A stretch of DNA of 9,673 nt from Pseudomonadota bacterium (GTDB lineage Bacteria > Pseudomonadota > Gammaproteobacteria > Steroidobacterales > Steroidobacteraceae). Positions 1 through 9,673 of the stretch are shown in pieces. Numbering within the stretch: the stretch's first letter is position 1; each line of letters starts with the position of its first letter. Made by a program: the position numbers and the translations under genes. The notes under the pieces are model-generated. The model saw nothing but the letters and a program-made list of their open reading frames with translations. It was not told the DNA's origin and searched no databases. The stretch spans positions 1-9,673 of the forward strand of contig JAJZLX010000046.1 in assembly GCA_021850555.1 (NCBI GenBank), in the 5' to 3' direction.

Positions 1-113
1 TGTCCCTCAACTTCGCCCAGGTGAAGGTCGAATACGCGCAGCAGGCGGACAAGGGCGGCAAGAAAGGAACGCAGAGCTTCGACTGGAACATCGCCGAGAA
101 CGCCAAGTCTTGA
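1..113 (+). CDS. hcp: Hcp, T6SS inner-tube protein (3' end only)
   Basis: This is the last 36 codons of a reading frame that enters from the left edge (first full codon at 3) and stops at TGA 111-113. The visible tail contains LNFAQVKVEYAQQ and then SFDWNIAENAKS. This is the usual C-terminal strand pattern of Hcp1/DUF796 proteins, which have LNFAxVKVEY followed by a Trp-containing W(D/N)IAxN end. Hcp hexamers stack into the tube that is fired from the contractile sheath, and some effectors travel inside the ring. Its place directly before tagJ and tssE matches H1-like T6SS clusters. Only the tail is seen, so the Hcp subtype and any C-terminal effector fusion cannot be judged; the normal ending argues against a fusion. 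Confidence 0.88.
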   Translation, partial: SLNFAQVKVEYAQQADKGGKKGTQSFDWNIAENAKS

Positions 114-904
114 GCGACTCGCAGCAGCTGTTCCGGAACGGCAAGCTCCGCGAGTCTCTCGCGGCGCTGCAGAGCGAGGTGCGCGCTTCGCCGGCCGATG
201 CGAAGCTGCGCACCTTCCTCGCCCAGATGCTGATGCTGACGGGCGATTGGGACCGGGCCGTCAATCAGCTGCAGGTGGCCGCAGAGCTCGATGCGTCGGC
301 GCTGCCGATGAAGCATGCCTACACGGCGGCCATCGACAGCGAGCGGCTGCGGGCGGCGGTGTTCGCCGGCGAGAAGCGCCCGCTCATCCTCGGCGACCCG
401 CCGACGTGGATCGCCGTGCTGCTTCAGGCCCTGACGGCGCTGGCGCAGGGCAGGGCGCAGGAGTCCGCGCAGCTGCGTGCGCAGGCGCTCGAGGAGGCTG
501 AGGCGACGGCAGGGCGCATGAACGGCACCGAGTTCGACTGGATCGCGGATGCCGACTCGCGCTTGGGCCCGGTGCTCGAGGTGTTCCTGAACGGGGCGTA
601 TTACTGGGCACCGTTCTCGAGGATCCGGCGCATCGTCATCGAGCCGCCGGCGGACGCGAGGGACCTCGTGTGGGTGCCGGCTCAGTTCACCTGGAGCAAC
701 GAGGGTCAGGCGATGGGATTCATCCCCGCGCGCTACCCGGGCTCCGAGCACAGTGAGGATGACGGGGTGCGAATGGGCCGCAGGACGCAGTGGCAGGCCA
801 TCGGAGACGGCGCATTTGCCGGCATCGGCCAACGGGTGCTCGCGACCAACGGCGATGAGTTGGGGCTGCTCGAGGTGCGAGAGCTCGTGCTTAAGAGCGA
901 CTGA
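110..904 (+). CDS. tagJ: TagJ/ImpE family T6SS accessory protein
   Basis: This 264-residue protein is of the ImpE/TagJ (HsiE1) family, an accessory factor found in one class of T6SS. TagJ has been reported to bind the sheath protein TssB and, in some systems, ClpV, so its likely role is in sheath assembly or recycling in the cytoplasm. Residues 6-60 look like the helical, TPR-like N-terminal part (GKLRESLAALQSEVRASPAD). The C-terminal half carries family signatures: FDWIADADSRLGPVLE (142-157), YYWAPF (164-169), DLVWVP (185-190) and ARYPG (207-211) followed by an acidic DD pair. No signal peptide or membrane segment is visible. The start chosen is TTG at 110, which shares four bases (TTGA) with the hcp stop; this implies translational coupling. 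No nearby ATG would give a normal family N-terminus. The family assignment is firm; the exact role is inferred. Confidence 0.9.
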   Translation: MSDSQQLFRNGKLRESLAALQSEVRASPADAKLRTFLAQMLMLTGDWDRAVNQLQVAAELDASALPMKHAYTAAIDSERLRAAVFAGEKRPLILGDPPTWIAVLLQALTALAQGRAQESAQLRAQALEEAEATAGRMNGTEFDWIADADSRLGPVLEVFLNGAYYWAPFSRIRRIVIEPPADARDLVWVPAQFTWSNEGQAMGFIPARYPGSEHSEDDGVRMGRRTQWQAIGDGAFAGIGQRVLATNGDELGLLEVRELVLKSD

Positions 905-913
905 GCACGAGCC

Positions 914-1702
914 ATGGCCGAGCTCAGCTTGCGCGAGCGTCTCCAACCGGCGTTGCTCGATCGGCTCGAGGACGACGAGCGATTCCTCACGATCTTTCAT
1001 GTCGAGGTCGCTCGCGCGCAACTCGCGCGGCTGAAGCTCACCGAGCGCGAATGGCTCGAGATCCTCTTTGCCCAGGGGCTGCGGATCGTCGAGGATGAGC
1101 GGGACGGGGCGGCGGACCGCGCCGGTGAGGACCCGCTCCACTCCCGGCTCTTTGCGCCGAGCGGGCGAGTGAGTCCGGCACATCTCAAAGCGCTGGTGTT
1201 GAAGCCCCCGGGCGCGCCGCAGGGCATCGCGGTGCAGGAGTTCTGCGGGATCGAGACGCACACCGTGCCGAACACCATGCTCGAATCGAGCGAGCGGCGC
1301 AACGTGTCGATGCGGCGGCTGCGCGAGTGCGTGCTACGCGATGTCGCCTCGCTCCTCAATGCGCTCAACCTCGAGACGAGCGTCGCTCTCGAGCGCTACC
1401 CGCGCGTGCAGCGCTCGGTGCTGAACTACGGCATGCGCTCGCTGGCGGGGCTCTCTGCGGCCGCGGTCGATCCGGCCACGGCGGCCGCGGGCATCGAGGA
1501 GGCCATCCGCCGCTTCGAGCCGCGGCTGCGCAAGGTGCACGTCGCGCCCGAAACGCGCGGCGAGCGGCGGGAAGGCCATCAGCTGTCTTTCCGGATCGAC
1601 GCGGAGCTCTGGGGCCAGCCGGCGCCGCAGCAGCTCATCCTGAGAACGCGTATCGAGACCGACTCCGGCGACGTCTCCGTCAGCGATTCCGGCGCAGGTT
1701 GA
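914..1702 (+). CDS. tssE: TssE baseplate protein (gp25-like) with an internal insertion
   Basis: TssE is the gp25-like baseplate wedge subunit of the T6SS and joins the sheath to TssF/TssG. The N-terminus MAELSLRERLQPALLDRLEDDE (residues 1-22) has the usual TssE start, including the LQPxLLDRL motif. The family core resumes at about residue 124: RNVSMRRLRECVLRDVASLLNA (129-150), SVLNYGM (168-174), RFEPRL (200-205) and the closing IETDSGDVSV (247-256). The protein has 262 residues, whereas TssE is usually about 130-170. The excess is a block at roughly residues 23-123 (bases 980-1282) lying between these two conserved parts. The frame is open throughout and the flanks are intact, so this is an in-frame insertion or a long family variant rather than a frameshift. 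The start ATG is 9 bases after the tagJ stop. The identity is secure; the function of the insert is unknown. Confidence 0.88.
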   Translation: MAELSLRERLQPALLDRLEDDERFLTIFHVEVARAQLARLKLTEREWLEILFAQGLRIVEDERDGAADRAGEDPLHSRLFAPSGRVSPAHLKALVLKPPGAPQGIAVQEFCGIETHTVPNTMLESSERRNVSMRRLRECVLRDVASLLNALNLETSVALERYPRVQRSVLNYGMRSLAGLSAAAVDPATAAAGIEEAIRRFEPRLRKVHVAPETRGERREGHQLSFRIDAELWGQPAPQQLILRTRIETDSGDVSVSDSGAG

Positions 1703-1706
1703 GCCC

Positions 1707-3581
1707 ATGGACCCGCGCATCCTCGAGTACTACAACCGGGAGCTGCAGTTTATCCAGGAGATGGGCGCGGAGTTCGCCGAATCCTATCCGAGGATCGCCG
1801 CGCGCCTCGGGCTCGAGGGACTCGAGTGCGCGGACCCGTACGTCGAGCGGCTTCTCGAGGGCTTCGCGTTCCTTGCCGCGCGCATTCAGCTGAAGCTCGA
1901 TGCGCGCCACCCGGATTTTACGCAGCATCTGCTCGAGATGATCTACCCGCATTTCCTCGCGCCCGTGCCGTCCTGCACGGTCGTCGAGTTCGCGCCCGAT
2001 CCCAAGGAAGGCGCCCAGCTCGCCGGTGTCACCATTCCCCGCGGCGCCGTTCTGAGGACGCCGCTCGGCAAGGGGGATCGGACGGCTTGCGAGTTTCGCA
2101 CCGGTCACGCGGTGAGCCTCTGGCCGCTGACGCTGATCGAGGCGAAGTATCTCTCGGGCACCGGCGCGCTCGCCATGCAGGACATCCCGGTCGACGCCCG
2201 GGCCCGCGCGGGCATTCGCCTGCGGCTGAAAGCGGCCCCAGGGGTGAGCATCGACACGCTGGATCTCGATTCCCTCACATTTTTCCTCAAGGCGACGCCC
2301 GGGCTCACTCAGGCGCTCTATGAGCAGATCACCGCCGACTGCCTCGGCTTTTGCGTGCGCTCGACGCAGAAGGGTGCCACGGTCCTCGCGCGCTCGGCCG
2401 CGAGCGTGCGCCAGGTCGGATTCGAGGACGAGGAGGCGCTGCTGCCGGTCACCCGGCGCGGCTTCCAGGGCTATCGCTTGCTGCAGGAGTACTTCGCCTT
2501 TCCCGAGCGCTTCCATTTCTTCGCGCTCGACCATCTGCGCGAGGGCATCGCGCAGTGCGCGGGCGAGGAGCTCGAGATCCATCTGGCGCTCTGCCGCGCC
2601 AATGCGGCGCTCGAGAACGCGCTCGATGCGAGCCACTTCCGCCTCTTCTGCGCGCCCGCGGTCAACCTTTTCCCGCGCGCCGCCGACCGCATTCACCTCG
2701 AGCCGTTCGACACCGAGCAGCATCTGCTCGCCGACCGCAACCGGCCGATGGATTTCGAGATCTTCGGCATCGAGCGTCTGAGCGCCGTCGACACCGATGG
2801 TGAGCCGATCGGCGAGATCCGCCCCTTCTACGCGACCGATCACCAGAGCGACCTGGGCTCGCCCGCGCTCTACTACACGATGCAGCGGCGAGCGCGATTG
2901 CCGTCCGCACGCCAGCAGCAATTCGGTACGCGGGCGGCTTACGTCGGCAGCGAGTGCTTCGTCTCGGTCGTCGACAGCGCCCAGCGCCAGCTCGAAGGCC
3001 GGATCCGGCAGATCGACGCGCAGGTGCTGTGCACCAATCGGGATCTGCCGGTGCAGCTCGCCGTCGGACAGGGACGCACGAGCTTTCTCATCGAGGGCGG
3101 CATCCCCGTCGAGTCCGTCCGTTGCATCGCCGGTCCGAGCGCGCCGCGCCCATCGCCGGCTTTCGGCGACACGGCGTGGAGGCTGATCGGGCAACTCTCC
3201 CTCAACTATCTCTCGCTCATCGAGGAGGGCAGCCCGGCCGCGGCGCAGATGCTGCGCGCCATGCTCGCGCTCTACCGCGATCCGAATGACTCGGCGGCGG
3301 CGCGTCAGATCGAGGGCGTGGTGGGCGTGGGCTATCGGCCGCTGGTGCGGCGCATGCCCATCCCCGGTCCCATCAGCTACGGCCGCGGCCTCGAGATCAC
3401 CCTGACGCTGGATGATGCGCCGTTCGAGGGCGCTGGCGTCGTGGTGCTGGCCACGGTTCTGGAGCGGTTCTTCTCGCGCTACGTTTCCATCAACTCGTTC
3501 ACGCAGACGCGCCTCGACTCCGCGGCGCGCGGGACGATCAAGACATGGCCGGTACGAGCGGGCAGACGTCAGATCGTGTGA
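1707..3581 (+). CDS. tssF: TssF baseplate protein (ImpG/VasA)
   Basis: TssF has 624 residues, normal for the family (about 590-630). It forms the T6SS baseplate wedge with TssG and TssE on the cytoplasmic side. The opening is typical: MDPRILEYYNREL, then MGAEFAESYPRIAARLGLEG, then DPYVERLLEGFAFLAARIQL at about residues 43-62 and HLLEMIYPHFLAPVPS near 73-88. The C-terminus has the usual VLERFFSRYVSINSFTQT (about 588-605) and ends shortly after a K-T-W-P segment. No key part appears to be missing. It starts 4 bases after the tssE stop and its last 37 bases overlap tssG, so it is translated as part of the same operon. The ATG at 1707 fits the conserved N-terminus exactly. Confidence 0.95.
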   Translation: MDPRILEYYNRELQFIQEMGAEFAESYPRIAARLGLEGLECADPYVERLLEGFAFLAARIQLKLDARHPDFTQHLLEMIYPHFLAPVPSCTVVEFAPDPKEGAQLAGVTIPRGAVLRTPLGKGDRTACEFRTGHAVSLWPLTLIEAKYLSGTGALAMQDIPVDARARAGIRLRLKAAPGVSIDTLDLDSLTFFLKATPGLTQALYEQITADCLGFCVRSTQKGATVLARSAASVRQVGFEDEEALLPVTRRGFQGYRLLQEYFAFPERFHFFALDHLREGIAQCAGEELEIHLALCRANAALENALDASHFRLFCAPAVNLFPRAADRIHLEPFDTEQHLLADRNRPMDFEIFGIERLSAVDTDGEPIGEIRPFYATDHQSDLGSPALYYTMQRRARLPSARQQQFGTRAAYVGSECFVSVVDSAQRQLEGRIRQIDAQVLCTNRDLPVQLAVGQGRTSFLIEGGIPVESVRCIAGPSAPRPSPAFGDTAWRLIGQLSLNYLSLIEEGSPAAAQMLRAMLALYRDPNDSAAARQIEGVVGVGYRPLVRRMPIPGPISYGRGLEITLTLDDAPFEGAGVVVLATVLERFFSRYVSINSFTQTRLDSAARGTIKTWPVRAGRRQIV

Positions 3582-4633
3582 GCGCCGAAGCGTCTGCGCG
3601 CGCGGCCGCGCCCAAGCGCTCCGCAGCGCTCGAGCAGCTGGGCACCGAGCCGCATCGGTTCACGCTGTTTGCCGCGTTGCGGCTGCTCGAGCAGAGCTTC
3701 CCTGACCGTCCGCGTCTCGGGGAGTCGCGCAGGGTCGCGGACGATGCCGTTCGTCTCGGGCAGAAGCCCAGCCTGTCGTTTGCGCCCTCGGATGTCGCCG
3801 GCTTTCAGGGCGTCTCGGAAGAAAGGCCCGCGCGGCTCGAGCAGTTCTCGTTCGGCATCTTCGGTCCCAACGGGGCGCTGCCCCTGCATCTCACCGAGCA
3901 CGCCTACGAGCGCTACCGGCAACGCGAGGACCCGACCCTCACCGATTTCGTCAATCTCTTCCAGCACCGGCTGATCTCGCTCTTCTATCGTGCCTGGGCC
4001 GAGTCCGACCCGGCGACGAGCTTCGACCGTCCCGAGAGCGATCGCTTCGCCTCGTACCTCGGCGCCCTGGCCGGTCTCGGCACATCCTCGGCGTTTTCCC
4101 GCGACGCCGCGCCCGATCGAGCGAAGCTCTGCCGGGTGGCGCATTTCGCGTCCCAGCCACGCTCTGCGGAGGGCCTGGAGAGCATTCTTGCGGAGTATTT
4201 CCGGCTTGCCGTCGAGGTGCGCCAGTTCGTCGGCGAGTGGATGGCCGTGCCCGCAGAGCTCTTCAGCCGTCTTGGCCGGGATCCCGCAGCCGTCTCGCTC
4301 GGGCGCACGACGGCCCTCGGCGCGCTGAGCTGGCAGTGCCAGCACAAGTTCGAGATCGTCATCGGGCCGCTCGATCTGAGGAGCTTCCGGGACTTGCTTC
4401 CCGGCTCGCGCGGGCTCGCCGAGCTCGCCGCTCTCGTGCGCCTCTATACCAACGAGGAGTGGAGCTGGCAGCTGCGCCTGCTGCTGCGGGATGTCGAGGT
4501 GCCGGGGGTGCGCCTGGGGAGCGCCGGACAGCTCGGATGGACCACCTGGCTCGGCGGGCGGGGACAGATGGCGGACGATGTGGTGATCCAGGAACCGACT
4601 TCAGACTGCAGTGTGCGGAAGATAAAGACATGA
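3545..4633 (+). CDS. tssG: TssG baseplate protein (ImpH/VasB)
   Basis: TssG partners TssF in the T6SS baseplate wedge. The 362-residue product shows the family pattern. A region of about 30 residues rich in Ala, Ser and Arg precedes EPHRFTLFAALRLLEQSF (about 35-52). RLEQFSFGIFGPNGALPLHLTEH (about 97-119) and FQHRLISLFYRAW (about 139-151) follow. The middle carries EVRQFVGEWMAVP, and near the end are LGWTTWL and a Gly-rich GGRG. The ATG at 3545 lies inside tssF. A GTG at 3578, in the same frame, overlaps the tssF stop as GTGA and would remove 11 residues; neither start has a strong ribosome binding site, so the true start is open. The gene ends in an ATGA overlap with clpV. Identity is secure. 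Confidence 0.93.
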   Translation: MAGTSGQTSDRVSAEASARAAAPKRSAALEQLGTEPHRFTLFAALRLLEQSFPDRPRLGESRRVADDAVRLGQKPSLSFAPSDVAGFQGVSEERPARLEQFSFGIFGPNGALPLHLTEHAYERYRQREDPTLTDFVNLFQHRLISLFYRAWAESDPATSFDRPESDRFASYLGALAGLGTSSAFSRDAAPDRAKLCRVAHFASQPRSAEGLESILAEYFRLAVEVRQFVGEWMAVPAELFSRLGRDPAAVSLGRTTALGALSWQCQHKFEIVIGPLDLRSFRDLLPGSRGLAELAALVRLYTNEEWSWQLRLLLRDVEVPGVRLGSAGQLGWTTWLGGRGQMADDVVIQEPTSDCSVRKIKT

Positions 4634-7383
4634 GTGACATCAGTCGTGTGGCGCTTTTCGGCAAGCTCAACAGCCTCGCCTACAAGGCGATCGAGAGCGC
4701 CACTGTATTTTGCAAGCTTCGGGGTAATCCGTACGTCGAGCTCGTGCACTGGCTGCACCAGGTCCTGCAGCTGCAGAGCTCCGACGTACATCTGACCGTG
4801 CGCGCCTTCGGACTCGATCCGGCCCGGCTCGCCCGCGACATGACCGAGGCGCTCGACCGGCTGCCACGCGGGGCGAGCTCGATCTCCGATCTGTCCTCGC
4901 ACATCGAGGATGCCACCGAGCGCGCCTGGGTCTGGGCGACCCTCAAATACGGCGAGTCGCGCATCCGCACGGGCCACGTCCTCGTGGCCCTCGCGAAGAC
5001 CTCGGACTTGCGCAACGCCCTGCTCGCGATGTCGCGCGAGTTCGAGAAAGTGAATCCGGACAAGCTCGCGGACGATTTTGCGAAAATCGTCGCCAGCTCC
5101 CCGGAGGAAACCCTCGGGGCGAGCGACGGCAGTCAGCTCACCGAAGCGGCGGCTCCCGGGGAGGCGAGCGGAGCGCTGCCTCCGGCACAGCTCGGCAAGC
5201 AGGAGGCGCTCAAGCGCTTCACGGTGGACCTGACGGAGCAGGCGCGGCTCGGCAAGATCGATCCGGTGGTCGGCAGAGATGAGGAGATCCGCCAGATCGT
5301 CGACATCCTGATGCGACGGCGCCAGAACAATCCGATCCTGACAGGCGAAGCGGGCGTCGGAAAAACGGCGGTCGTCGAGGGCTTCGCACGCCGCATCGCC
5401 GCCGGGGACGTCCCACCGTCGCTGAGGGAGGTGACACTGCGAGCGCTCGATGTCGGGCTGCTGCAGGCCGGGGCGAGCATGAAAGGCGAGTTCGAGCAGC
5501 GCCTGCGTCAGGTCATCGACGAGGTGCAGGCATCGCCGAAGCCGATCGTGCTGTTCATCGACGAGGTGCACACGCTGGTCGGGGCGGGCGGCGCGGCGGG
5601 AACCGGCGATGCGGCCAACTTGCTGAAGCCCGCGCTGGCGCGCGGCACGTTGCGGACCATCGGCGCGACGACCTGGGCGGAGTACAAGAAGTACATCGAG
5701 AAGGACCCCGCGCTCACGCGGCGATTTCAGACCGTCAAGATCGAGGAGCCGAGCGAAGCGAAGGCCGTGCAGATGATGCGCGGGGTCGTCTCGGTGATGG
5801 AAAAGCACCACCGCGTGCAAGTGCTCGACGAGGCGCTCGAGGCGGCCGTGAAGCTCGCCCATCGCTATGTGCCCGACCGACAGCTGCCGGACAAGTCCGT
5901 GAGCCTCCTCGATACGGCGTGCGCGCGGGTCGCGGTAAGTCACCACGCGACGCCCGCCGAAGTCGAGGACAGCCAGCGTCGCATCGAGGCGCTCCAGACG
6001 GAGCTCGAGATCATCGGGCGGGAGGCGGCCATCGGCGTCGAGGTTGGCGAGCGATCCGAGAGCGCGCAGTCCGCGGTGCGCGAGGAGCGTGAGCGGCTGA
6101 AGACGCTGCAGGCGGCGTGGGCGCGGGAGAAGGCGATCGTCGATGAGATCCTCTCGGTGCGCGCGAAGCTCAGGGCATCGGGAGCTTCCGCGGACGCCTC
6201 GGCGGCAACAGCGACAGGCGGGCCGGCCGCGGTGCCTGCGAGTGCGGGTGCGACGGACGCTGCGGGCGCCGATGCGCCGTTGACTGAGAGCGAGCGGACC
6301 GCCGCGCGCGCGCGCCTGCGGGAGCTGCAGGGAATGCTTGCCGAGACGCAGGGGGAACGGCCGCTCGTGCTGCCGAGCGTAGATGAGCAGGCGGTCGCCG
6401 GGGTGATCGCCGACTGGACCGGCATCCCGGTCGGGCGCATGGTGAAGGACGAGGTGGCGACCGTGCTCACTCTCGCCAAGACCTTGGGCCAGCGCGTCGT
6501 TGGCCAGGATCACGCGCTCGAGATGATCACCCGGCGGATTCAGACCTCGCGCGCCAGCCTGGAGAATCCCAACAAGCCGATAGGGGTGTTCATGCTGGCC
6601 GGACCCTCGGGTGTCGGCAAGACCGAGACGGCGCTCGCGCTGGCCGAGGCGCTCTACGGCGGCGAGCAGAACCTCATCATTATCAACATGAGCGAGTTTC
6701 AGGAGGCGCACACGGTCTCCACGCTGAAGGGCGCACCGCCCGGATATGTCGGCTATGGGGAGGGCGGAGTACTCACCGAGGCCGTGCGCCGCAGACCCTA
6801 CAGCGTCGTGCTGCTCGACGAGGTGGAAAAGGCCCACTCCGACGTGCACGAGATCTTCTTCCAGGTCTTCGACAAGGGGATCATGGAGGACGGGGAGGGC
6901 CGGCTCATCGACTTCAAGAACACCCTCATCATCCTCACGACCAACGTCGGCACGGACCTCATCATGGGGATGTGCAAGGACCCGCAGCTGCTGCCCGATC
7001 CCGAAGGCATCGCAAAGGCATTGCGCCCGCCCATGTTGAAGAGCTTCCCGGCGGCGCTCCTCGGCAGGATCGTAGTGATTCCCTACTACCCACTCGCCGA
7101 TGCGGTGCTGCAGAGCATCATCCGGTTGCAGCTCGATCGTGTTGTGGCGCGCATCCGGCAGAATCACGCGGCGGCGCTGCGCTACGACGAGGATGTCGTG
7201 CGCCTCATCGCCGCGCGCTGCGCCGAGCCCGAGAGCGGCGGCCGCATGATCGATGCAATCCTCACCAACACGCTGCTGCCGCAGGTGAGCCGAGAATTCC
7301 TCGAGCGCATCTCCCAGGGCATGGCGACGCGCGAGGTCGCGATATCGGTCAAGGACAGCGATTTCGGGTATTCCTTCGCCTAG
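4630..7383 (+). CDS. clpV: ClpV (TssH), T6SS sheath-recycling AAA+ ATPase
   Basis: ClpV is the Clp/Hsp100-family hexameric ATPase that unfolds contracted TssB/TssC sheath so that it can be reused. The product has 917 residues, slightly longer than the usual 870-900. An N-terminal substrate-binding domain covers about 1-160. The first ATPase domain has Walker A GEAGVGKT (239-246), Walker B FIDEVH (309-314, with D311 and E312) and an arginine finger in TRRF (363-366). The coiled-coil middle domain is at about 425-555, with an Ala-rich linker at about 515-550. The second ATPase domain has Walker A GPSGVGKT (658-665) and Walker B LLDEVEKAH (728-736). Both ATP sites look intact. The start ATG at 4630 overlaps the tssG stop (ATGA). 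The reading frame stays open upstream into tssG, but that part is only tssG read in another frame; the conserved ClpV start MSDISRVALFGKLNS fits 4630. Confidence 0.96.
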   Translation: MSDISRVALFGKLNSLAYKAIESATVFCKLRGNPYVELVHWLHQVLQLQSSDVHLTVRAFGLDPARLARDMTEALDRLPRGASSISDLSSHIEDATERAWVWATLKYGESRIRTGHVLVALAKTSDLRNALLAMSREFEKVNPDKLADDFAKIVASSPEETLGASDGSQLTEAAAPGEASGALPPAQLGKQEALKRFTVDLTEQARLGKIDPVVGRDEEIRQIVDILMRRRQNNPILTGEAGVGKTAVVEGFARRIAAGDVPPSLREVTLRALDVGLLQAGASMKGEFEQRLRQVIDEVQASPKPIVLFIDEVHTLVGAGGAAGTGDAANLLKPALARGTLRTIGATTWAEYKKYIEKDPALTRRFQTVKIEEPSEAKAVQMMRGVVSVMEKHHRVQVLDEALEAAVKLAHRYVPDRQLPDKSVSLLDTACARVAVSHHATPAEVEDSQRRIEALQTELEIIGREAAIGVEVGERSESAQSAVREERERLKTLQAAWAREKAIVDEILSVRAKLRASGASADASAATATGGPAAVPASAGATDAAGADAPLTESERTAARARLRELQGMLAETQGERPLVLPSVDEQAVAGVIADWTGIPVGRMVKDEVATVLTLAKTLGQRVVGQDHALEMITRRIQTSRASLENPNKPIGVFMLAGPSGVGKTETALALAEALYGGEQNLIIINMSEFQEAHTVSTLKGAPPGYVGYGEGGVLTEAVRRRPYSVVLLDEVEKAHSDVHEIFFQVFDKGIMEDGEGRLIDFKNTLIILTTNVGTDLIMGMCKDPQLLPDPEGIAKALRPPMLKSFPAALLGRIVVIPYYPLADAVLQSIIRLQLDRVVARIRQNHAAALRYDEDVVRLIAARCAEPESGGRMIDAILTNTLLPQVSREFLERISQGMATREVAISVKDSDFGYSFA

Positions 7384-7455
7384 CAGTCCGGCGATGTCTA
7401 TATCAACACGTTCAGTGCACAAAAGCGGCGCAATGGCACCGCGAGGAGATAACAG
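7384..7455 (+). other. Short gap between clpV and the PLC-like gene, with a ribosome binding site
   Basis: This 72-base spacer is the first real gap after a run of coupled T6SS genes. It has no hairpin followed by a T-run, so I see no terminator. A GAGGAG Shine-Dalgarno sequence at 7443-7448 lies 7 bases before the GTG at 7456, which decides the start of the next gene; the first ATG (7468) is 19 bases from it. No convincing promoter is visible, so the next gene is probably read through from clpV. Confidence 0.55.
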
Positions 7456-8490
7456 GTGAATCCAACGATGTGGATGCGCGATCTGCCGGACGACAAATGG
7501 CTGCGTCAGATCATCATGCCGGGCAGCCATGACGCCGGTGTCTACGGCACGGCGCAGGTCGTTCTGCGCACGACTTCGCTCGTCAAGCGGGAGTACACGG
7601 TCTGCCAGCACTCGGATTTTTCCAAGCAGGCTACGGCCGGATCCCGCTTCTTCGACTGCCGGGTATTCTTTCGCAAGCTTCCCCAGGCCGAGCGTGCGGG
7701 CAAACAGCTTTACGGGAAGTCGGGGCAGGCGTCGCAGAAGTACGAGAATACCCTAGGCCACTTCGCGCGGGAGAAGGTGAAGGGCGCCGTGCAGCCCAAG
7801 ATGGGCGGCTTCGGCGGCACGCTCGCGGTGATCCTGCGCGATGCCCTCGAGTTCGTGCTGGCCCATCCGACCGAATTCATCATCCTGCGCTTCTCGCATA
7901 CCTATCATCCCACGGAGTGCGTGCACGAGATCAAGAACATCATCGGCGACCAGCGCTACGCCAACGCGGTGTTCAAGGAGCAGGGCAATCTCGCCACGCG
8001 CCGCATCGGCGACCTGCGCGGCAAGGTGATCATGGTCTTCGACGAGCAGTTCAACCATCACATCACGCCGACCGAGGGCATCCTGCGCTTCAAGAAGTAT
8101 TCCGACGGCCTCACCAACATCAGCGGACTGGCGACCTGCGGGACGTTTTCGAGCTCCCTCAAGATGTCGAAAGTGCACGAGGGGGCGATCGACGCGGTAA
8201 ACAAGCACTTGGCGCATCCGCCCGATCCCGGACATCTGCACTTCGTCTACTGGCAGCAGACCGCCGGCATCATCGGCGAGAAGGACGTGTTCAAGACCAC
8301 GGTGGCGCCGCGCAAGCCCGGCAAGCAGTGGAGCGGCGGCACGCATGCGAATCTCGCTGACTTCGCCGCGGAGCTCAAGCGGATATACGACAACAATGGC
8401 CGCAGGATTCCGGCGAACGTGGTCTCGCACGACTTCGTGACCTCGGACACCTGCGAGAAGATCATTCGCCTCAATCCCGAGGTTACCTGA
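7456..8490 (+). CDS. PI-PLC X-domain-like phosphodiesterase, candidate T6SS effector
   Basis: The 344-residue product resembles bacterial phosphatidylinositol-specific phospholipases C, which cleave the glycerol-phosphate bond of inositol lipids by acid-base chemistry with two histidines. The catalytic region opens with IIMPGSHDAG, giving His25 and Asp26. GSRFFDCRV follows (Asp67, Arg69), then the candidate second histidine His102 in TLGHF. FVLAHPTEFIILRF (133-146) is the strand motif common in the X domain, and NVVSHDFV (321-328) supplies Asp326, matching the C-terminal aspartate that pairs with the first histidine in the Bacillus cereus enzyme. The spacing from Arg69 to His102 is longer than in that enzyme, so His102 is a tentative assignment. 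There is no signal peptide, membrane segment or lipobox. Lying between clpV and vgrG, it is plausibly a T6SS cargo, but export is inferred from location only. The start is GTG, chosen for its well-placed GAGGAG. An inactive PLC-like lectin or a non-secreted enzyme remains possible. Confidence 0.8.
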   Translation: MNPTMWMRDLPDDKWLRQIIMPGSHDAGVYGTAQVVLRTTSLVKREYTVCQHSDFSKQATAGSRFFDCRVFFRKLPQAERAGKQLYGKSGQASQKYENTLGHFAREKVKGAVQPKMGGFGGTLAVILRDALEFVLAHPTEFIILRFSHTYHPTECVHEIKNIIGDQRYANAVFKEQGNLATRRIGDLRGKVIMVFDEQFNHHITPTEGILRFKKYSDGLTNISGLATCGTFSSSLKMSKVHEGAIDAVNKHLAHPPDPGHLHFVYWQQTAGIIGEKDVFKTTVAPRKPGKQWSGGTHANLADFAAELKRIYDNNGRRIPANVVSHDFVTSDTCEKIIRLNPEVT

Positions 8491-8506
8491 GAACACGGGG
8501 AATGAT

Positions 8507-8601
8507 GCGGATCCGGCAGAGCCACGAGGCGGCGCTGCGCTGCGGCTAACGATGTCGCGCGCCTCATCGCCTCGCGTCCCACCGAGCCCGAGAGCAGCTG
8601 G
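8507..8601 (+). pseudogene. Decayed duplicate of a clpV 3' segment
   Basis: This stretch aligns with clpV 7149-7241. Aligned by eye from 7153/8511 over 90 columns, 74 are identical and there is one single-base insertion in the copy. Identical blocks are ATCCGGCAGA (7153 and 8511), GGCGGCGCTGCGCT (7170 and 8528), GCGCCTCATCGCC (7200 and 8559) and CCGAGCCCGAGAGC (7223 and 8582). The offset changes from 1358 to 1359 after the insertion. It corresponds to ClpV residues about 842-871 in the C-terminal small domain. In the original frame the copy hits TAA at 8547-8549, and the insertion also shifts the frame. It is a non-functional remnant on the same strand as clpV. Similarity fades sharply on both sides. 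Confidence 0.85.
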
Positions 8602-8892
8602 TCTACGAGCCAGAGGGGCCCATTGGCCCTCACACGCCGGCTCCCACTTCCGCTGCGGAGCCGCCGCCTCGGACCGCGAGCCGGTACGTGTGCGAACTGC
8701 TCGACAATTTCGCGCGAGGGGTGTGTCCACTCGGCACTGGAAGGGGCCGGCTTCGGCAGGATCTGCATCTAGCACGGCATTCTCCGGCGGGAACGGCGCG
8801 GAGGTCGCAGGTCTCATCGTGCCTGGCGAAGCGATCTGAGGCATCATGCGTCGCGGAAACGAGGGGAACATCGCACTAAGCCGCGGTAGTCC

Positions 8893-8922
8893 TTGAAAAC
8901 TCATGTCTTTTCCTGCTATGTG
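8893..8922 (+). promoter_or_regulatory. Possible sigma-70-type promoter before the small gene and vgrG
   Basis: TTGAAA (8893-8898) matches five of six bases of the -35 consensus. An extended -10, TGC then TATGTG (8914-8922), follows with an 18-base spacer. The -10 hexamer itself matches only at its first three bases. It sits in an AT-rich island within GC-rich DNA, about 30 bases upstream of the 8956 start. A separate promoter here would free the small gene and vgrG from the main T6SS operon. The evidence is moderate at best. Confidence 0.35.
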
Positions 8923-8946
8923 TATCGCAATTTCTCAGCTTCGTCT

Positions 8947-8950
8947 GGAG
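8947..8950 (+). promoter_or_regulatory. Ribosome binding site that sets the start at 8956
   Basis: GGAG ends 5 bases before the ATG at 8956. An upstream in-frame TTG at 8893 would add 21 residues but has no ribosome binding site and coincides with the possible -35 box, so 8956 is preferred. Confidence 0.6.
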
Positions 8951-8955
8951 CATCG

Positions 8956-9234
8956 ATGGCGCGCGCGAAAGTAGTCGAGTTCGACTATTACCAGTTCATC
9001 GGGCTCATGCGCCGTGCAACCGACGCGGGCAAGCGGATCGACAAGGCGGACGGCAAGCGCTGGGTGGATTACATAAAATCCCGTGGAATCAATGAAGTAG
9101 GCGCCACCGCCATCGCCCGCCAGAAGTTCGAGCAGGCCATTGCGGTGATCATCGACGAGGGGCTCGACACGGACGGTTTATACTTCTACTCGAAGAACGA
9201 CGAAGGTTGCCTGCGCCTGCAGACGATCGAGTGA
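8956..9234 (+). CDS. Hypothetical 92-residue protein next to vgrG
   Basis: I do not recognise a family. The product is a small soluble protein with many charged residues and no signal peptide, lipobox or membrane segment. It begins MARAKVVEFDYYQFIGLMRR, continues with an alternating Lys/Asp segment (about 26-36), has a likely helix around ATAIARQKFEQAIAVIIDEG (50-69), and ends with an aromatic and acidic stretch, GLYFYSKNDEG (74-84). Charged helices followed by short strands suggest a compact alpha/beta domain. It lies 82 bases before vgrG on the same strand and is probably co-transcribed with it. By position it could be a VgrG/effector adaptor, an immunity protein for the PLC-like protein, or unrelated cargo. 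The lack of an export signal argues against a periplasmic immunity protein. The start is supported by GGAG at good spacing, and the A/T share looks higher than in the T6SS core. Confidence 0.75.
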   Translation: MARAKVVEFDYYQFIGLMRRATDAGKRIDKADGKRWVDYIKSRGINEVGATAIARQKFEQAIAVIIDEGLDTDGLYFYSKNDEGCLRLQTIE

Positions 9235-9272
9235 CCGGCGGGCGCGATGCCGATCGCGGCGCGGCGGATGGG

Positions 9273-9294
9273 GCGGTCTGCGCGGGAGGACCGC
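9273..9294 (+). other. Hairpin in the vgrG leader
   Basis: GCGGTC (9273-9278) and GACCGC (9289-9294) form a perfect 6-bp stem with a 10-base loop that contains GGGAG. It ends 22 bases before the vgrG ATG. There is no T-run, so it is not a terminator. In DNA this GC-rich such stems arise by chance, and any effect on vgrG translation is speculative. Confidence 0.3.
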
Positions 9295-9316
9295 TGCGGG
9301 CGCAACGAGAACACCA

Positions 9317-9673
9317 ATGACCACCAAGTACCAGGACAACCGGTCCGTCAAGGTGACGAGTCCTTTCGGACCGAACGTGCTCGTGTTCGCGAGCATGACC
9401 AGCGCGCAGCACCTGAGCCGGCCCTTCCAGTGCGACATTTCATTGCACAGCGAGAGCGGGGATCTAGATCCTGACAAGATCCTCGGCAAACCGCTCGTAG
9501 TGTCGCTCGCGACGACGGGGCAGAAGCCGCTGCGCTACTTCCACGGCCTGGTCACCAAATTCCAGCAGGTCGGCTACGACGAGCGGATGCACCAGTACCG
9601 GGCCGTCACGCGGCCGTGGTTCTGGTTTCTCACGCGCACGGCCGACTGCCGCGTCTTCCAGAACCAGAGCGCG
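9317..9673 (+). CDS. vgrG: VgrG (TssI), T6SS spike protein (5' end only)
   Basis: The first 119 codons of a frame that runs off the right edge. The start MTTKYQDNRSVKVTSPFG is followed by VLVFASMTSAQHLSRPFQCD and then by ILGKPLVVSLAT (about 55-66), YFHGLVTKFQQVG and YRAVTRPWFWFLTRTADCRVF. These are the usual landmarks of the gp27-like N-terminal domain of VgrG: the LS(R)xFxFD-type motif, the G(K/Q)P(L/V)-type strand, the (Y/F)FHG(L/I)V motif and the P-W-x-W/F-L-L/T motif. VgrG trimers cap the Hcp tube, pierce the target membrane and often carry effectors at their C-terminus. That C-terminus is outside the window, so it cannot be said whether this is an effector-bearing (evolved) VgrG. No strong ribosome binding site precedes the ATG. 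Confidence 0.93.
   Translation, partial: MTTKYQDNRSVKVTSPFGPNVLVFASMTSAQHLSRPFQCDISLHSESGDLDPDKILGKPLVVSLATTGQKPLRYFHGLVTKFQQVGYDERMHQYRAVTRPWFWFLTRTADCRVFQNQSA

What the first reader, a model, noticed from the sequence alone, without database searches (positions are those of the whole stretch)
8507..8601. Remnant of the clpV 3' end lies behind the PLC-like gene
About 90 bases, roughly 82 percent identical by hand alignment, repeat clpV 7149-7241 in the same orientation, with a stop and a one-base frameshift. The PLC-like gene is thus bracketed by an intact clpV end and a decayed clpV piece. This is what a partial duplication, or capture of an effector block along with a foreign clpV tail, would leave. 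It hints that the clpV-vgrG junction is a recombination site for exchanging cargo genes.
Basis: seen in the sequence. Interest (0 to 1): 0.7.

Follow-up and report, generated by a model that had tools for sequence, protein, structure and literature searches.

The report
Old clpV scrap behind a swapped gene
A 92-base decayed scrap of the secretion-motor gene clpV lies behind a phospholipase-like cargo gene, most likely as debris from an earlier gene order in a slot where bacteria swap cargo genes; the swapping process is already known in other bacteria.

Summary
Window 8507-8598 is a decayed copy of clpV 7149-7239 (76 of 92 columns; score 102 against 42 for the best of 1000 in-frame codon shuffles). 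It is an internal clpV piece, not the 3' end. Stop and frameshift are one lesion: an extra base at 8547 makes TAA in the clpV frame.

New here: five bases further on begin decayed pieces of a TPR-methyltransferase gene (8604-8717, 8713-8839). Relatives L001 and L107 have that gene intact in the order clpV - methyltransferase - small gene - vgrG. Scrap and debris are collinear with this older order; the PI-PLC-like gene sits between intact clpV and the relic. Other relatives hold Fic, an M35/Tlde1-like set, or no cargo there.

The closest relative found (L085, same PLC gene, 95% identical over 8.5 kb) lacks the scrap and keeps other debris. The spacer is far more diverged than its flanks, so it was probably exchanged separately.

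Best reading (0.6): an illegitimate recombination joint between a clpV-PLC segment and a clpV-methyltransferase segment, as proposed for T6SS cargo swapping in Vibrio and Pseudomonas. Tandem duplication is not excluded. That clpV is a general exchange anchor is not shown.

The parts
4630..7383 (+). clpV (tssH), intact, T6SS ATPase
   Evidence: TIGR03345 1271.7 bits over a cut-off of 884.95
7149..7239 (+). segment of clpV to which the relic corresponds (internal; 144 nt of clpV, stop included, follow it)
   Evidence: alignment score 102
7456..8490 (+). PI-PLC-like cargo gene, intact, 344 aa
   Evidence: family profile matches PDB PI-PLCs (4s3g, E 5.9e-18); AF2 model pLDDT 90.3 matches 1aod, Foldseek E 8.4e-13; no Pfam hit on its own, PF00388 in 4 of 42 family members scanned; H25, R69 and H102 invariant in 42 aligned sequences
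8491..8506 (+). joint between the PLC downstream edge and the clpV relic; homology with L085 ends near 8501; no identity run longer than 2 nt next to the clpV side
8507..8598 (+). decayed clpV relic with an extra base at 8547 (TAA)
8604..8717 (+). debris of a TPR-methyltransferase gene, residues about 169-206
   Evidence: profile of 125 sequences 13.4 bits, best of 900 shuffled control frames 3.5; profile of 3 nearest genes 10.0 bits, best control 7.4; blastn 8631-8717 to L106 1812-1899, 71.6%, E 1.6e-7
8713..8839 (+). debris of the 3' end of the same TPR-methyltransferase gene (profile match 8713-8796, residues 357-384; DNA homology runs on to the small gene)
   Evidence: profiles 11.6 and 13.8 bits; blastn 8716-8955 to L105 7965-8206, 74%, E 8.7e-39
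8956..9234 (+). small conserved gene of unknown function (92 aa) before vgrG
   Evidence: tblastn identity 96/95/92/74% in L085/L104/L105/L001
9317..9673 (+). vgrG (tssI), 5' part
   Evidence: PF05954 E 7.9e-26; TIGR03361 E 3e-26, 92.1 bits on this fragment, below the whole-protein cut-off 186.35

Best explanation
The relic marks an illegitimate recombination joint in a T6SS cargo slot. On one side is DNA with the order clpV - PLC; on the other is DNA with the older order clpV - (cargo) - TPR-methyltransferase - small gene - vgrG. Shared sequence (clpV on the left or small gene/vgrG on the right) would anchor incoming DNA by homologous pairing, while its other end was joined without homology just behind the PLC gene, inside the old clpV. 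This leaves an intact clpV in front of PLC and, behind it, a headless clpV piece on the side of its old neighbour. Without selection, the old clpV end and the methyltransferase then suffered deletions and point decay. Shown: the relic, its decay without selection, methyltransferase debris five bases behind it in the old order and orientation, other cargo in the same slot of relatives, and a spacer more diverged than both flanks. Inferred: the recombination mechanism, which side was incoming, and the order of events.
For: Relic ends at 8598 and methyltransferase debris begins at 8604, same strand and order as intact clpV-methyltransferase in L107 (gap about 54 nt) and L001 (28 nt). L085 carries other pieces of such an older order behind the same PLC: part of the 424-aa cargo gene of L105 (10713-10786, E 3.5e-14, 67 bits) and the methyltransferase TPR part (11000-11112, E 1.9e-17, 77 bits) (best of 200 triplet-shuffled L105 intervals 32.8 bits). 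Behind the clpV stop the sequences with different cargo show no evident homology (printed, judged by eye). Spacer identity window-L085 is 0.82/0.53/0.64/0.65 over 8710-8885, against 0.93-0.98 over 8886-9234 and 0.87 in the noncoding stretch 9235-9316. Bootstrap 97% (200 replicates) joins window and L085 clpV without the relic; relic branch 0.147 substitutions per site, against 0.104 total four-fold divergence between window and L085, which suggests it is older than their split. One gene over the TssH cut-off in each of 5 of 5 kin genomes, so no second T6SS clpV as source there.
Against: Only 91 bases: AU does not reject the relic as sister of the window's own clpV (P 0.59; the program warned of too few replicates), as a local duplication would give. 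L085, with the same PLC, has no clpV relic (score 27, shuffle maximum 34). A donor-type tail in the intact clpV is only weakly hinted: four-fold differences window-L104 10/21 in 7240-7380 against 106/454 upstream of 7147, P 0.018 uncorrected; not seen for window-L105. In 296 genomes searched with window 8491-8955, 24 matched at E<=1e-3 but none showed relic and debris joined in one match (two candidates scored per genome), so the joint is known from this window alone. The methyltransferase profile margins are modest (10.0 against a control of 7.4 bits for one piece).
Confidence: 0.6

Rival explanations
1. Local tandem duplication of a clpV-tail-plus-PLC unit (start-to-start spacing 1358) followed by one deletion that removed the second PLC, the last clpV bases and the front of the methyltransferase gene.
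For: Gives the same order; needs the same single deletion; relic as sister of window's clpV not rejected (AU 0.59); spacing 1358-1359.
Against: Needs an extra event (PLC gain by itself). Only five bases lie between relic and methyltransferase debris, so no room for a second PLC trace. The relic shares states at 7152 and 7164 with L104/L105 rather than with window/L085, though 7175 and 7194 go the other way. Window and L085 clpV group without the relic at 97% bootstrap. Does not explain the deep divergence of the spacer.
Confidence: 0.2
2. A small ectopic copy of clpV (about 92 nt, template switching or repair patch) landed in the spacer, unrelated to the cargo exchange.
For: No clear excess of such pieces over control segments: 2 of 79 clpV tails against 4 of 289 controls at E<=1e-6.
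Against: It would be a coincidence that it sits between PLC and methyltransferase debris in the old order and same orientation.
Confidence: 0.12
3. The piece comes from a different clp-type gene elsewhere in the genome.
For: Further Clp-type genes below the TssH cut-off exist in the kin genomes.
Against: Placement outside L107 and the four nearest clpV genes is rejected by KH, SH and AU (AU 0.004); placement just outside the four nearest is rejected by AU (0.0235) but not by KH (0.143) or SH (0.394). One gene over the TssH cut-off in each of 5 of 5 kin genomes. The window's own genome is not held.
Confidence: 0.03
4. Chance similarity from codon bias.
For: GC-rich coding sequence of one genome.
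Against: Score 102 against best 42 of 1000 in-frame codon shuffles.
Confidence: 0.005

Closest known systems
Sequential displacement of T6SS effector-immunity modules in Vibrio cholerae (Sci Rep 2017, PMC5361080; passages, section 13)
   Same: New cargo goes in beside a conserved upstream region, old genes are shifted behind it; homology-facilitated illegitimate recombination is proposed; the 3' end of an old effector can be shifted back.
   Different: There the homologous region lies in or near vgrG/tap and immunity genes are retained; here the left neighbour is the core ATPase gene clpV, and what is left is a decayed clpV piece plus decayed TPR-methyltransferase. No immunity gene was identified.
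Effector swapping at T6SS loci of Pseudomonas aeruginosa (Nat Commun 2025, PMC11751169; passages)
   Same: Swapping by homologous and homology-facilitated illegitimate recombination, one dominant breakpoint in a conserved gene and less precise ones downstream.
   Different: Dominant breakpoint there is at the vgrG 3' end; here the joint lies inside clpV.
Orphaned 3' regions at rhs loci (mentioned in PMC5361080 section 13)
   Same: Headless gene pieces behind the active gene as a record of displacement.
   Different: Rhs pieces encode alternative toxin tips (recalled); this is a piece of a machine gene with no apparent use.

Membership tests
T6SS cargo displacement by homology-facilitated illegitimate recombination | Different cargo in the same slot of related strains between the same conserved genes | tested here: met
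   PLC (window, L085), Fic (L104), M35-like + 424 aa + Tlde1-like, the last below its cut-off (L105), none (L107, L108, L001):
T6SS cargo displacement by homology-facilitated illegitimate recombination | Pieces of the former occupants left behind the new cargo in their old order | tested here: met
   clpV relic then methyltransferase debris in window; L105-type cargo and methyltransferase debris in L085
T6SS cargo displacement by homology-facilitated illegitimate recombination | One breakpoint in homologous sequence, shown by a phylogenetic break in the anchor gene | tested here: inconclusive
   Only a weak rise of four-fold divergence in the last 140 nt of clpV for window-L104, none for window-L105
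T6SS cargo displacement by homology-facilitated illegitimate recombination | Other breakpoint without homology | tested here: met
   No identity run longer than 2 nt directly left of 7149/8507; one joint only
T6SS cargo displacement by homology-facilitated illegitimate recombination | Old immunity genes retained | tested here: not met
   No recognisable intact gene between PLC and the small gene (ORF 8552-8839 spans relic and debris). Whether the small gene is an immunity gene is unknown; it is present without PLC in L001, L104, L105, L107, L108
PI-PLC family (cargo gene) | PI-PLC fold and conserved catalytic histidines | tested here: met
   PDB profile match, Foldseek match to 1aod, H25 and H102 invariant in 42 sequences; that these are the catalytic pair is recalled, not tested
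PI-PLC family (cargo gene) | Enzyme activity and T6SS delivery | not testable with these tools
   Position next to vgrG only

The most novel reading that the evidence does not exclude
clpV, a core machine gene, serves as an upstream homology anchor for exchanging T6SS cargo, so that cargo arrives with a fresh clpV tail and headless old clpV pieces accumulate behind it. This would be a readable fossil record of past arsenals in T6SS clusters with the clpV-cargo-vgrG layout (a second candidate is L015, a Chromatiaceae MAG).
Probability: 0.25. Interest if true: 0.6.

Novelty: new member of a known kind. Interest (0 to 1): 0.4.

Why it matters
The joint lets one read which genes occupied a T6SS cargo slot before the present one, and two close relatives show debris of two different older states behind the same cargo gene. 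It would extend the displacement picture from vgrG-anchored loci (Vibrio, Pseudomonas) to a slot bounded by clpV, in a bacterium whose clpV is nearest that of Steroidobacter among those fetched from named genomes. If clpV proves a regular anchor, hybrid clpV tails would have to be considered when clpV is used as a phylogenetic marker.

Tried and rejected
Chance match: rejected. Paralogous clp gene as source: disfavoured. RNA element: no Rfam match at E<=0.1 in 7350-9400; no promoter- or terminator-like site by the simple scan of 8440-9000. ORF 8552-8839: no Pfam match at 0.01, and it runs across relic and debris. Defence and phage families for the PLC-like and small proteins: none in PADLOC, only weak hits (E 0.036 and 0.087) in PHROGs. 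Plasmid records: 47 match window 7100-9230, none over 80% of it; best rows 8%, annotated tssH (20 of 47 rows seen). More PLC-bearing kin: 4 of 196, 4 of 296 and 4 of 396 genomes in overlapping samples, the same four each time, only G052 at 94%. The spacer in other genomes: 24 of 296 match at E<=1e-3, mostly short weak stretches, none with relic and debris joined. Recombination site at clpV: 79 of 81 loci had at least 300 nt behind clpV; 6 of 79 gave a second piece of the clpV tail (last 1200 nt) at E<=1e-3, 2 of 79 at E<=1e-6 (L015, L004), only L015 strong; control segments gave 4 of 289 at E<=1e-6, one as strong (L042). Low-complexity filtering was off in the survey and on in the control, and in short loci some control segments may overlap clpV. 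L015's piece differs 0/3/5 by codon position, so it does not show the decay pattern of the window's relic. Donor-type tail in the intact clpV: not convincing. Distant PLC relatives in G001, G005, G011: no match of the tssG, clpV, methyltransferase, small-gene or vgrG queries in the 16-17 kb fetched around them. Literature: five searches, of which I saw the listed titles and abstract starts only (15 of 118, 6 of 6, 10 of 421, 10 of 31, 10 of 19); none of those spoke of a clpV-anchored exchange; two papers were opened (passages; one section).

Full report
What was checked. The window carries part of a T6SS cluster: an ImpE-type gene, tssE, tssF, tssG, clpV, a PI-PLC-like gene, a small gene and the start of vgrG. 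The window's own genome is not held. By the C-terminal 327 residues of ClpV the best of 80 loci kept from the genome collection is Steroidobacter gossypii, 83%.

The relic. Window 8507-8598 aligns with clpV 7149-7239: 15 mismatches in 91 bases and one extra base. The score, 102, exceeds every null: 42 for 1000 Markov shuffles, 38 for 106 other 400-nt pieces of the window, 55 for 1000 triplet shuffles that were out of frame by mistake, and 42 for 1000 in-frame codon shuffles. The piece is internal to clpV. Its stop and frameshift are one lesion, the extra base at 8547. Codon positions of the differences are 5/6/4, compatible with no selection (P 0.79 against 2/3) and unlike 49/28/182 between the functional clpV genes of window and L104 (P 0.0009).

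The closest relative found. Genome G052 (locus L085) matches window 1-8501 at 95.2% and 8711-9673 at 89.4%. It has the same PLC gene (94% protein identity). PLC four-fold divergence, 0.094, is like that of all genes compared, 0.097, so PLC was probably there before the two split or moved with this whole stretch. Behind PLC the two differ: 209 nt in the window against 434 nt in L085 between the aligned blocks, and L085 has no clpV piece (best self-match 27, shuffle maximum 34).

What stood there before. In L001 and L107 the order is clpV - TPR-methyltransferase - small gene - vgrG; in L108 it is clpV - small gene - vgrG; in L104 a Fic-domain gene stands between clpV and the small gene; in L105 three cargo genes (M35-like, a 424-aa protein without Pfam match, a Tlde1-like protein slightly below its cut-off) precede an intact methyltransferase. 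Among the 81 loci searched, a methyltransferase relative lies within 1 kb behind clpV and before vgrG in at least six (L001, L004, L008, L017, L052, L073).

The debris. A profile of 125 methyltransferases finds residues 169-206 at window 8604-8717 (13.4 bits) and residues 357-384 at 8713-8796 (11.6 bits); the best of 900 shuffled frames scores 3.5. A profile of the three nearest genes gives 10.0 and 13.8 bits against 7.4 for its best control, a modest margin for the first piece. DNA comparison agrees: 8631-8717 with L106 (E 1.6e-7) and 8716-8955 with L105 (E 8.7e-39). Five bases separate the clpV relic from the methyltransferase debris, in the old order and orientation. L085 keeps other pieces of such an older order: a part of L105's 424-aa gene (E 3.5e-14), the TPR part and the 3' end of the methyltransferase.

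Age and history. The spacer is much more diverged than its flanks: window-L085 identity 0.82, 0.53, 0.64 and 0.65 in successive blocks of 8710-8885, then 0.93-0.98 over 8886-9234, and 0.87 in the noncoding gap 9235-9316. In those four blocks window and L085 are about as far from each other as each is from L105. The block 8840-8885 of the window is closest to L104 (0.80). The spacer was therefore probably exchanged separately in at least one of the two lineages. The relic's own branch is 0.147 substitutions per site, more than expected since the split, where the total four-fold divergence is 0.104. Its placement is open. In the best tree it stands beside the window-L085 pair (63% bootstrap, with 97% for the pair without it); AU leaves it free to be sister of window, of L085, of the pair, of L104/L105 or of L104 (P 0.59, 0.60, 0.67, 0.31, 0.34). 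It disfavours a place just outside these four (AU 0.0235, but KH 0.143 and SH 0.394), and one outside L107 is rejected by all three tests (the program warned that 5000 replicates are few for AU). Ten of its 91 bases differ from all four near relatives (of these, one equals L108, one L107 and one L001); it shares 7175 and 7194 with window/L085 but 7152 and 7164 with L104/L105.

Mechanism. I read the joint at about 8501-8507 as an illegitimate crossover between a clpV-PLC segment and a clpV-methyltransferase-small-gene segment. Two mirror images are possible: PLC with a fresh clpV tail came in from the left and displaced the old tail; or old-order DNA came in from the right behind an existing PLC. 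The sequence does not tell them apart. Tandem duplication plus deletion remains possible (0.2). The process has been proposed for V. cholerae (PMC5361080, section 13 read) and reported for P. aeruginosa (PMC11751169, passages), with vgrG rather than clpV as the conserved neighbour. A search of 296 kin genomes with window 8491-8955 found no second copy of the joint (24 of 296 match at E<=1e-3 in parts).

The cargo gene. It has no Pfam match by itself, but its family profile matches bacterial PI-PLC structures and its model (pLDDT 90.3) matches Listeria PI-PLC best (Foldseek E 8.4e-13). Delivery by the T6SS and the target are inferred from position alone.

How general. Of 79 loci with enough sequence behind clpV, L015 has one strong second clpV piece (85 nt, 84.7%, 1.5 kb behind clpV, after a 205-aa ORF without Pfam match and beside a 376-nt repeat that recurs at a Y1_Tnp-type gene). 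Its differences fall 0/3/5 by codon position, unlike the window's relic. Controls gave one hit as strong in 289 segments. This shows no excess, so clpV as a regular anchor remains a conjecture.

Noticed in passing
L015:12493-12576: A clpV piece (84.7% over 85 nt to L015 10364-10446) lies behind a 205-aa ORF and just before a 376-nt stretch (12585-12958) repeated at 14032-14407, at the start of a Y1_Tnp-type gene (14073-14840).
   Followed up: partly
window 8956-9234; L104, L105, L107, L108, L001: A 92-aa protein of unknown function is kept between the cargo slot and vgrG whatever the cargo; no Pfam match above cut-off.
   Followed up: partly
L105:5000-6274: A 424-aa protein without Pfam match sits between an M35-like and a Tlde1-like gene in the clpV-vgrG slot; a candidate T6SS cargo family.
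   Followed up: no
L001, L004, L008, L017, L052, L073: A TPR-methyltransferase gene shortly behind clpV recurs in T6SS clusters; its role is unclear, and it is decayed in window and L085.
   Followed up: partly
L111, L112, L113: Relatives of the PLC-like protein (41-43% identical) in G001, G005 and G011 have no vgrG or clpV match within the 16-17 kb fetched, so the family is not confined to T6SS loci.
   Followed up: partly
L042:4251-4338 and about 11010-11099: An 83% identical 90-nt repeat between an upstream segment and the stretch just behind the clpV match, found as a control hit.
   Followed up: no
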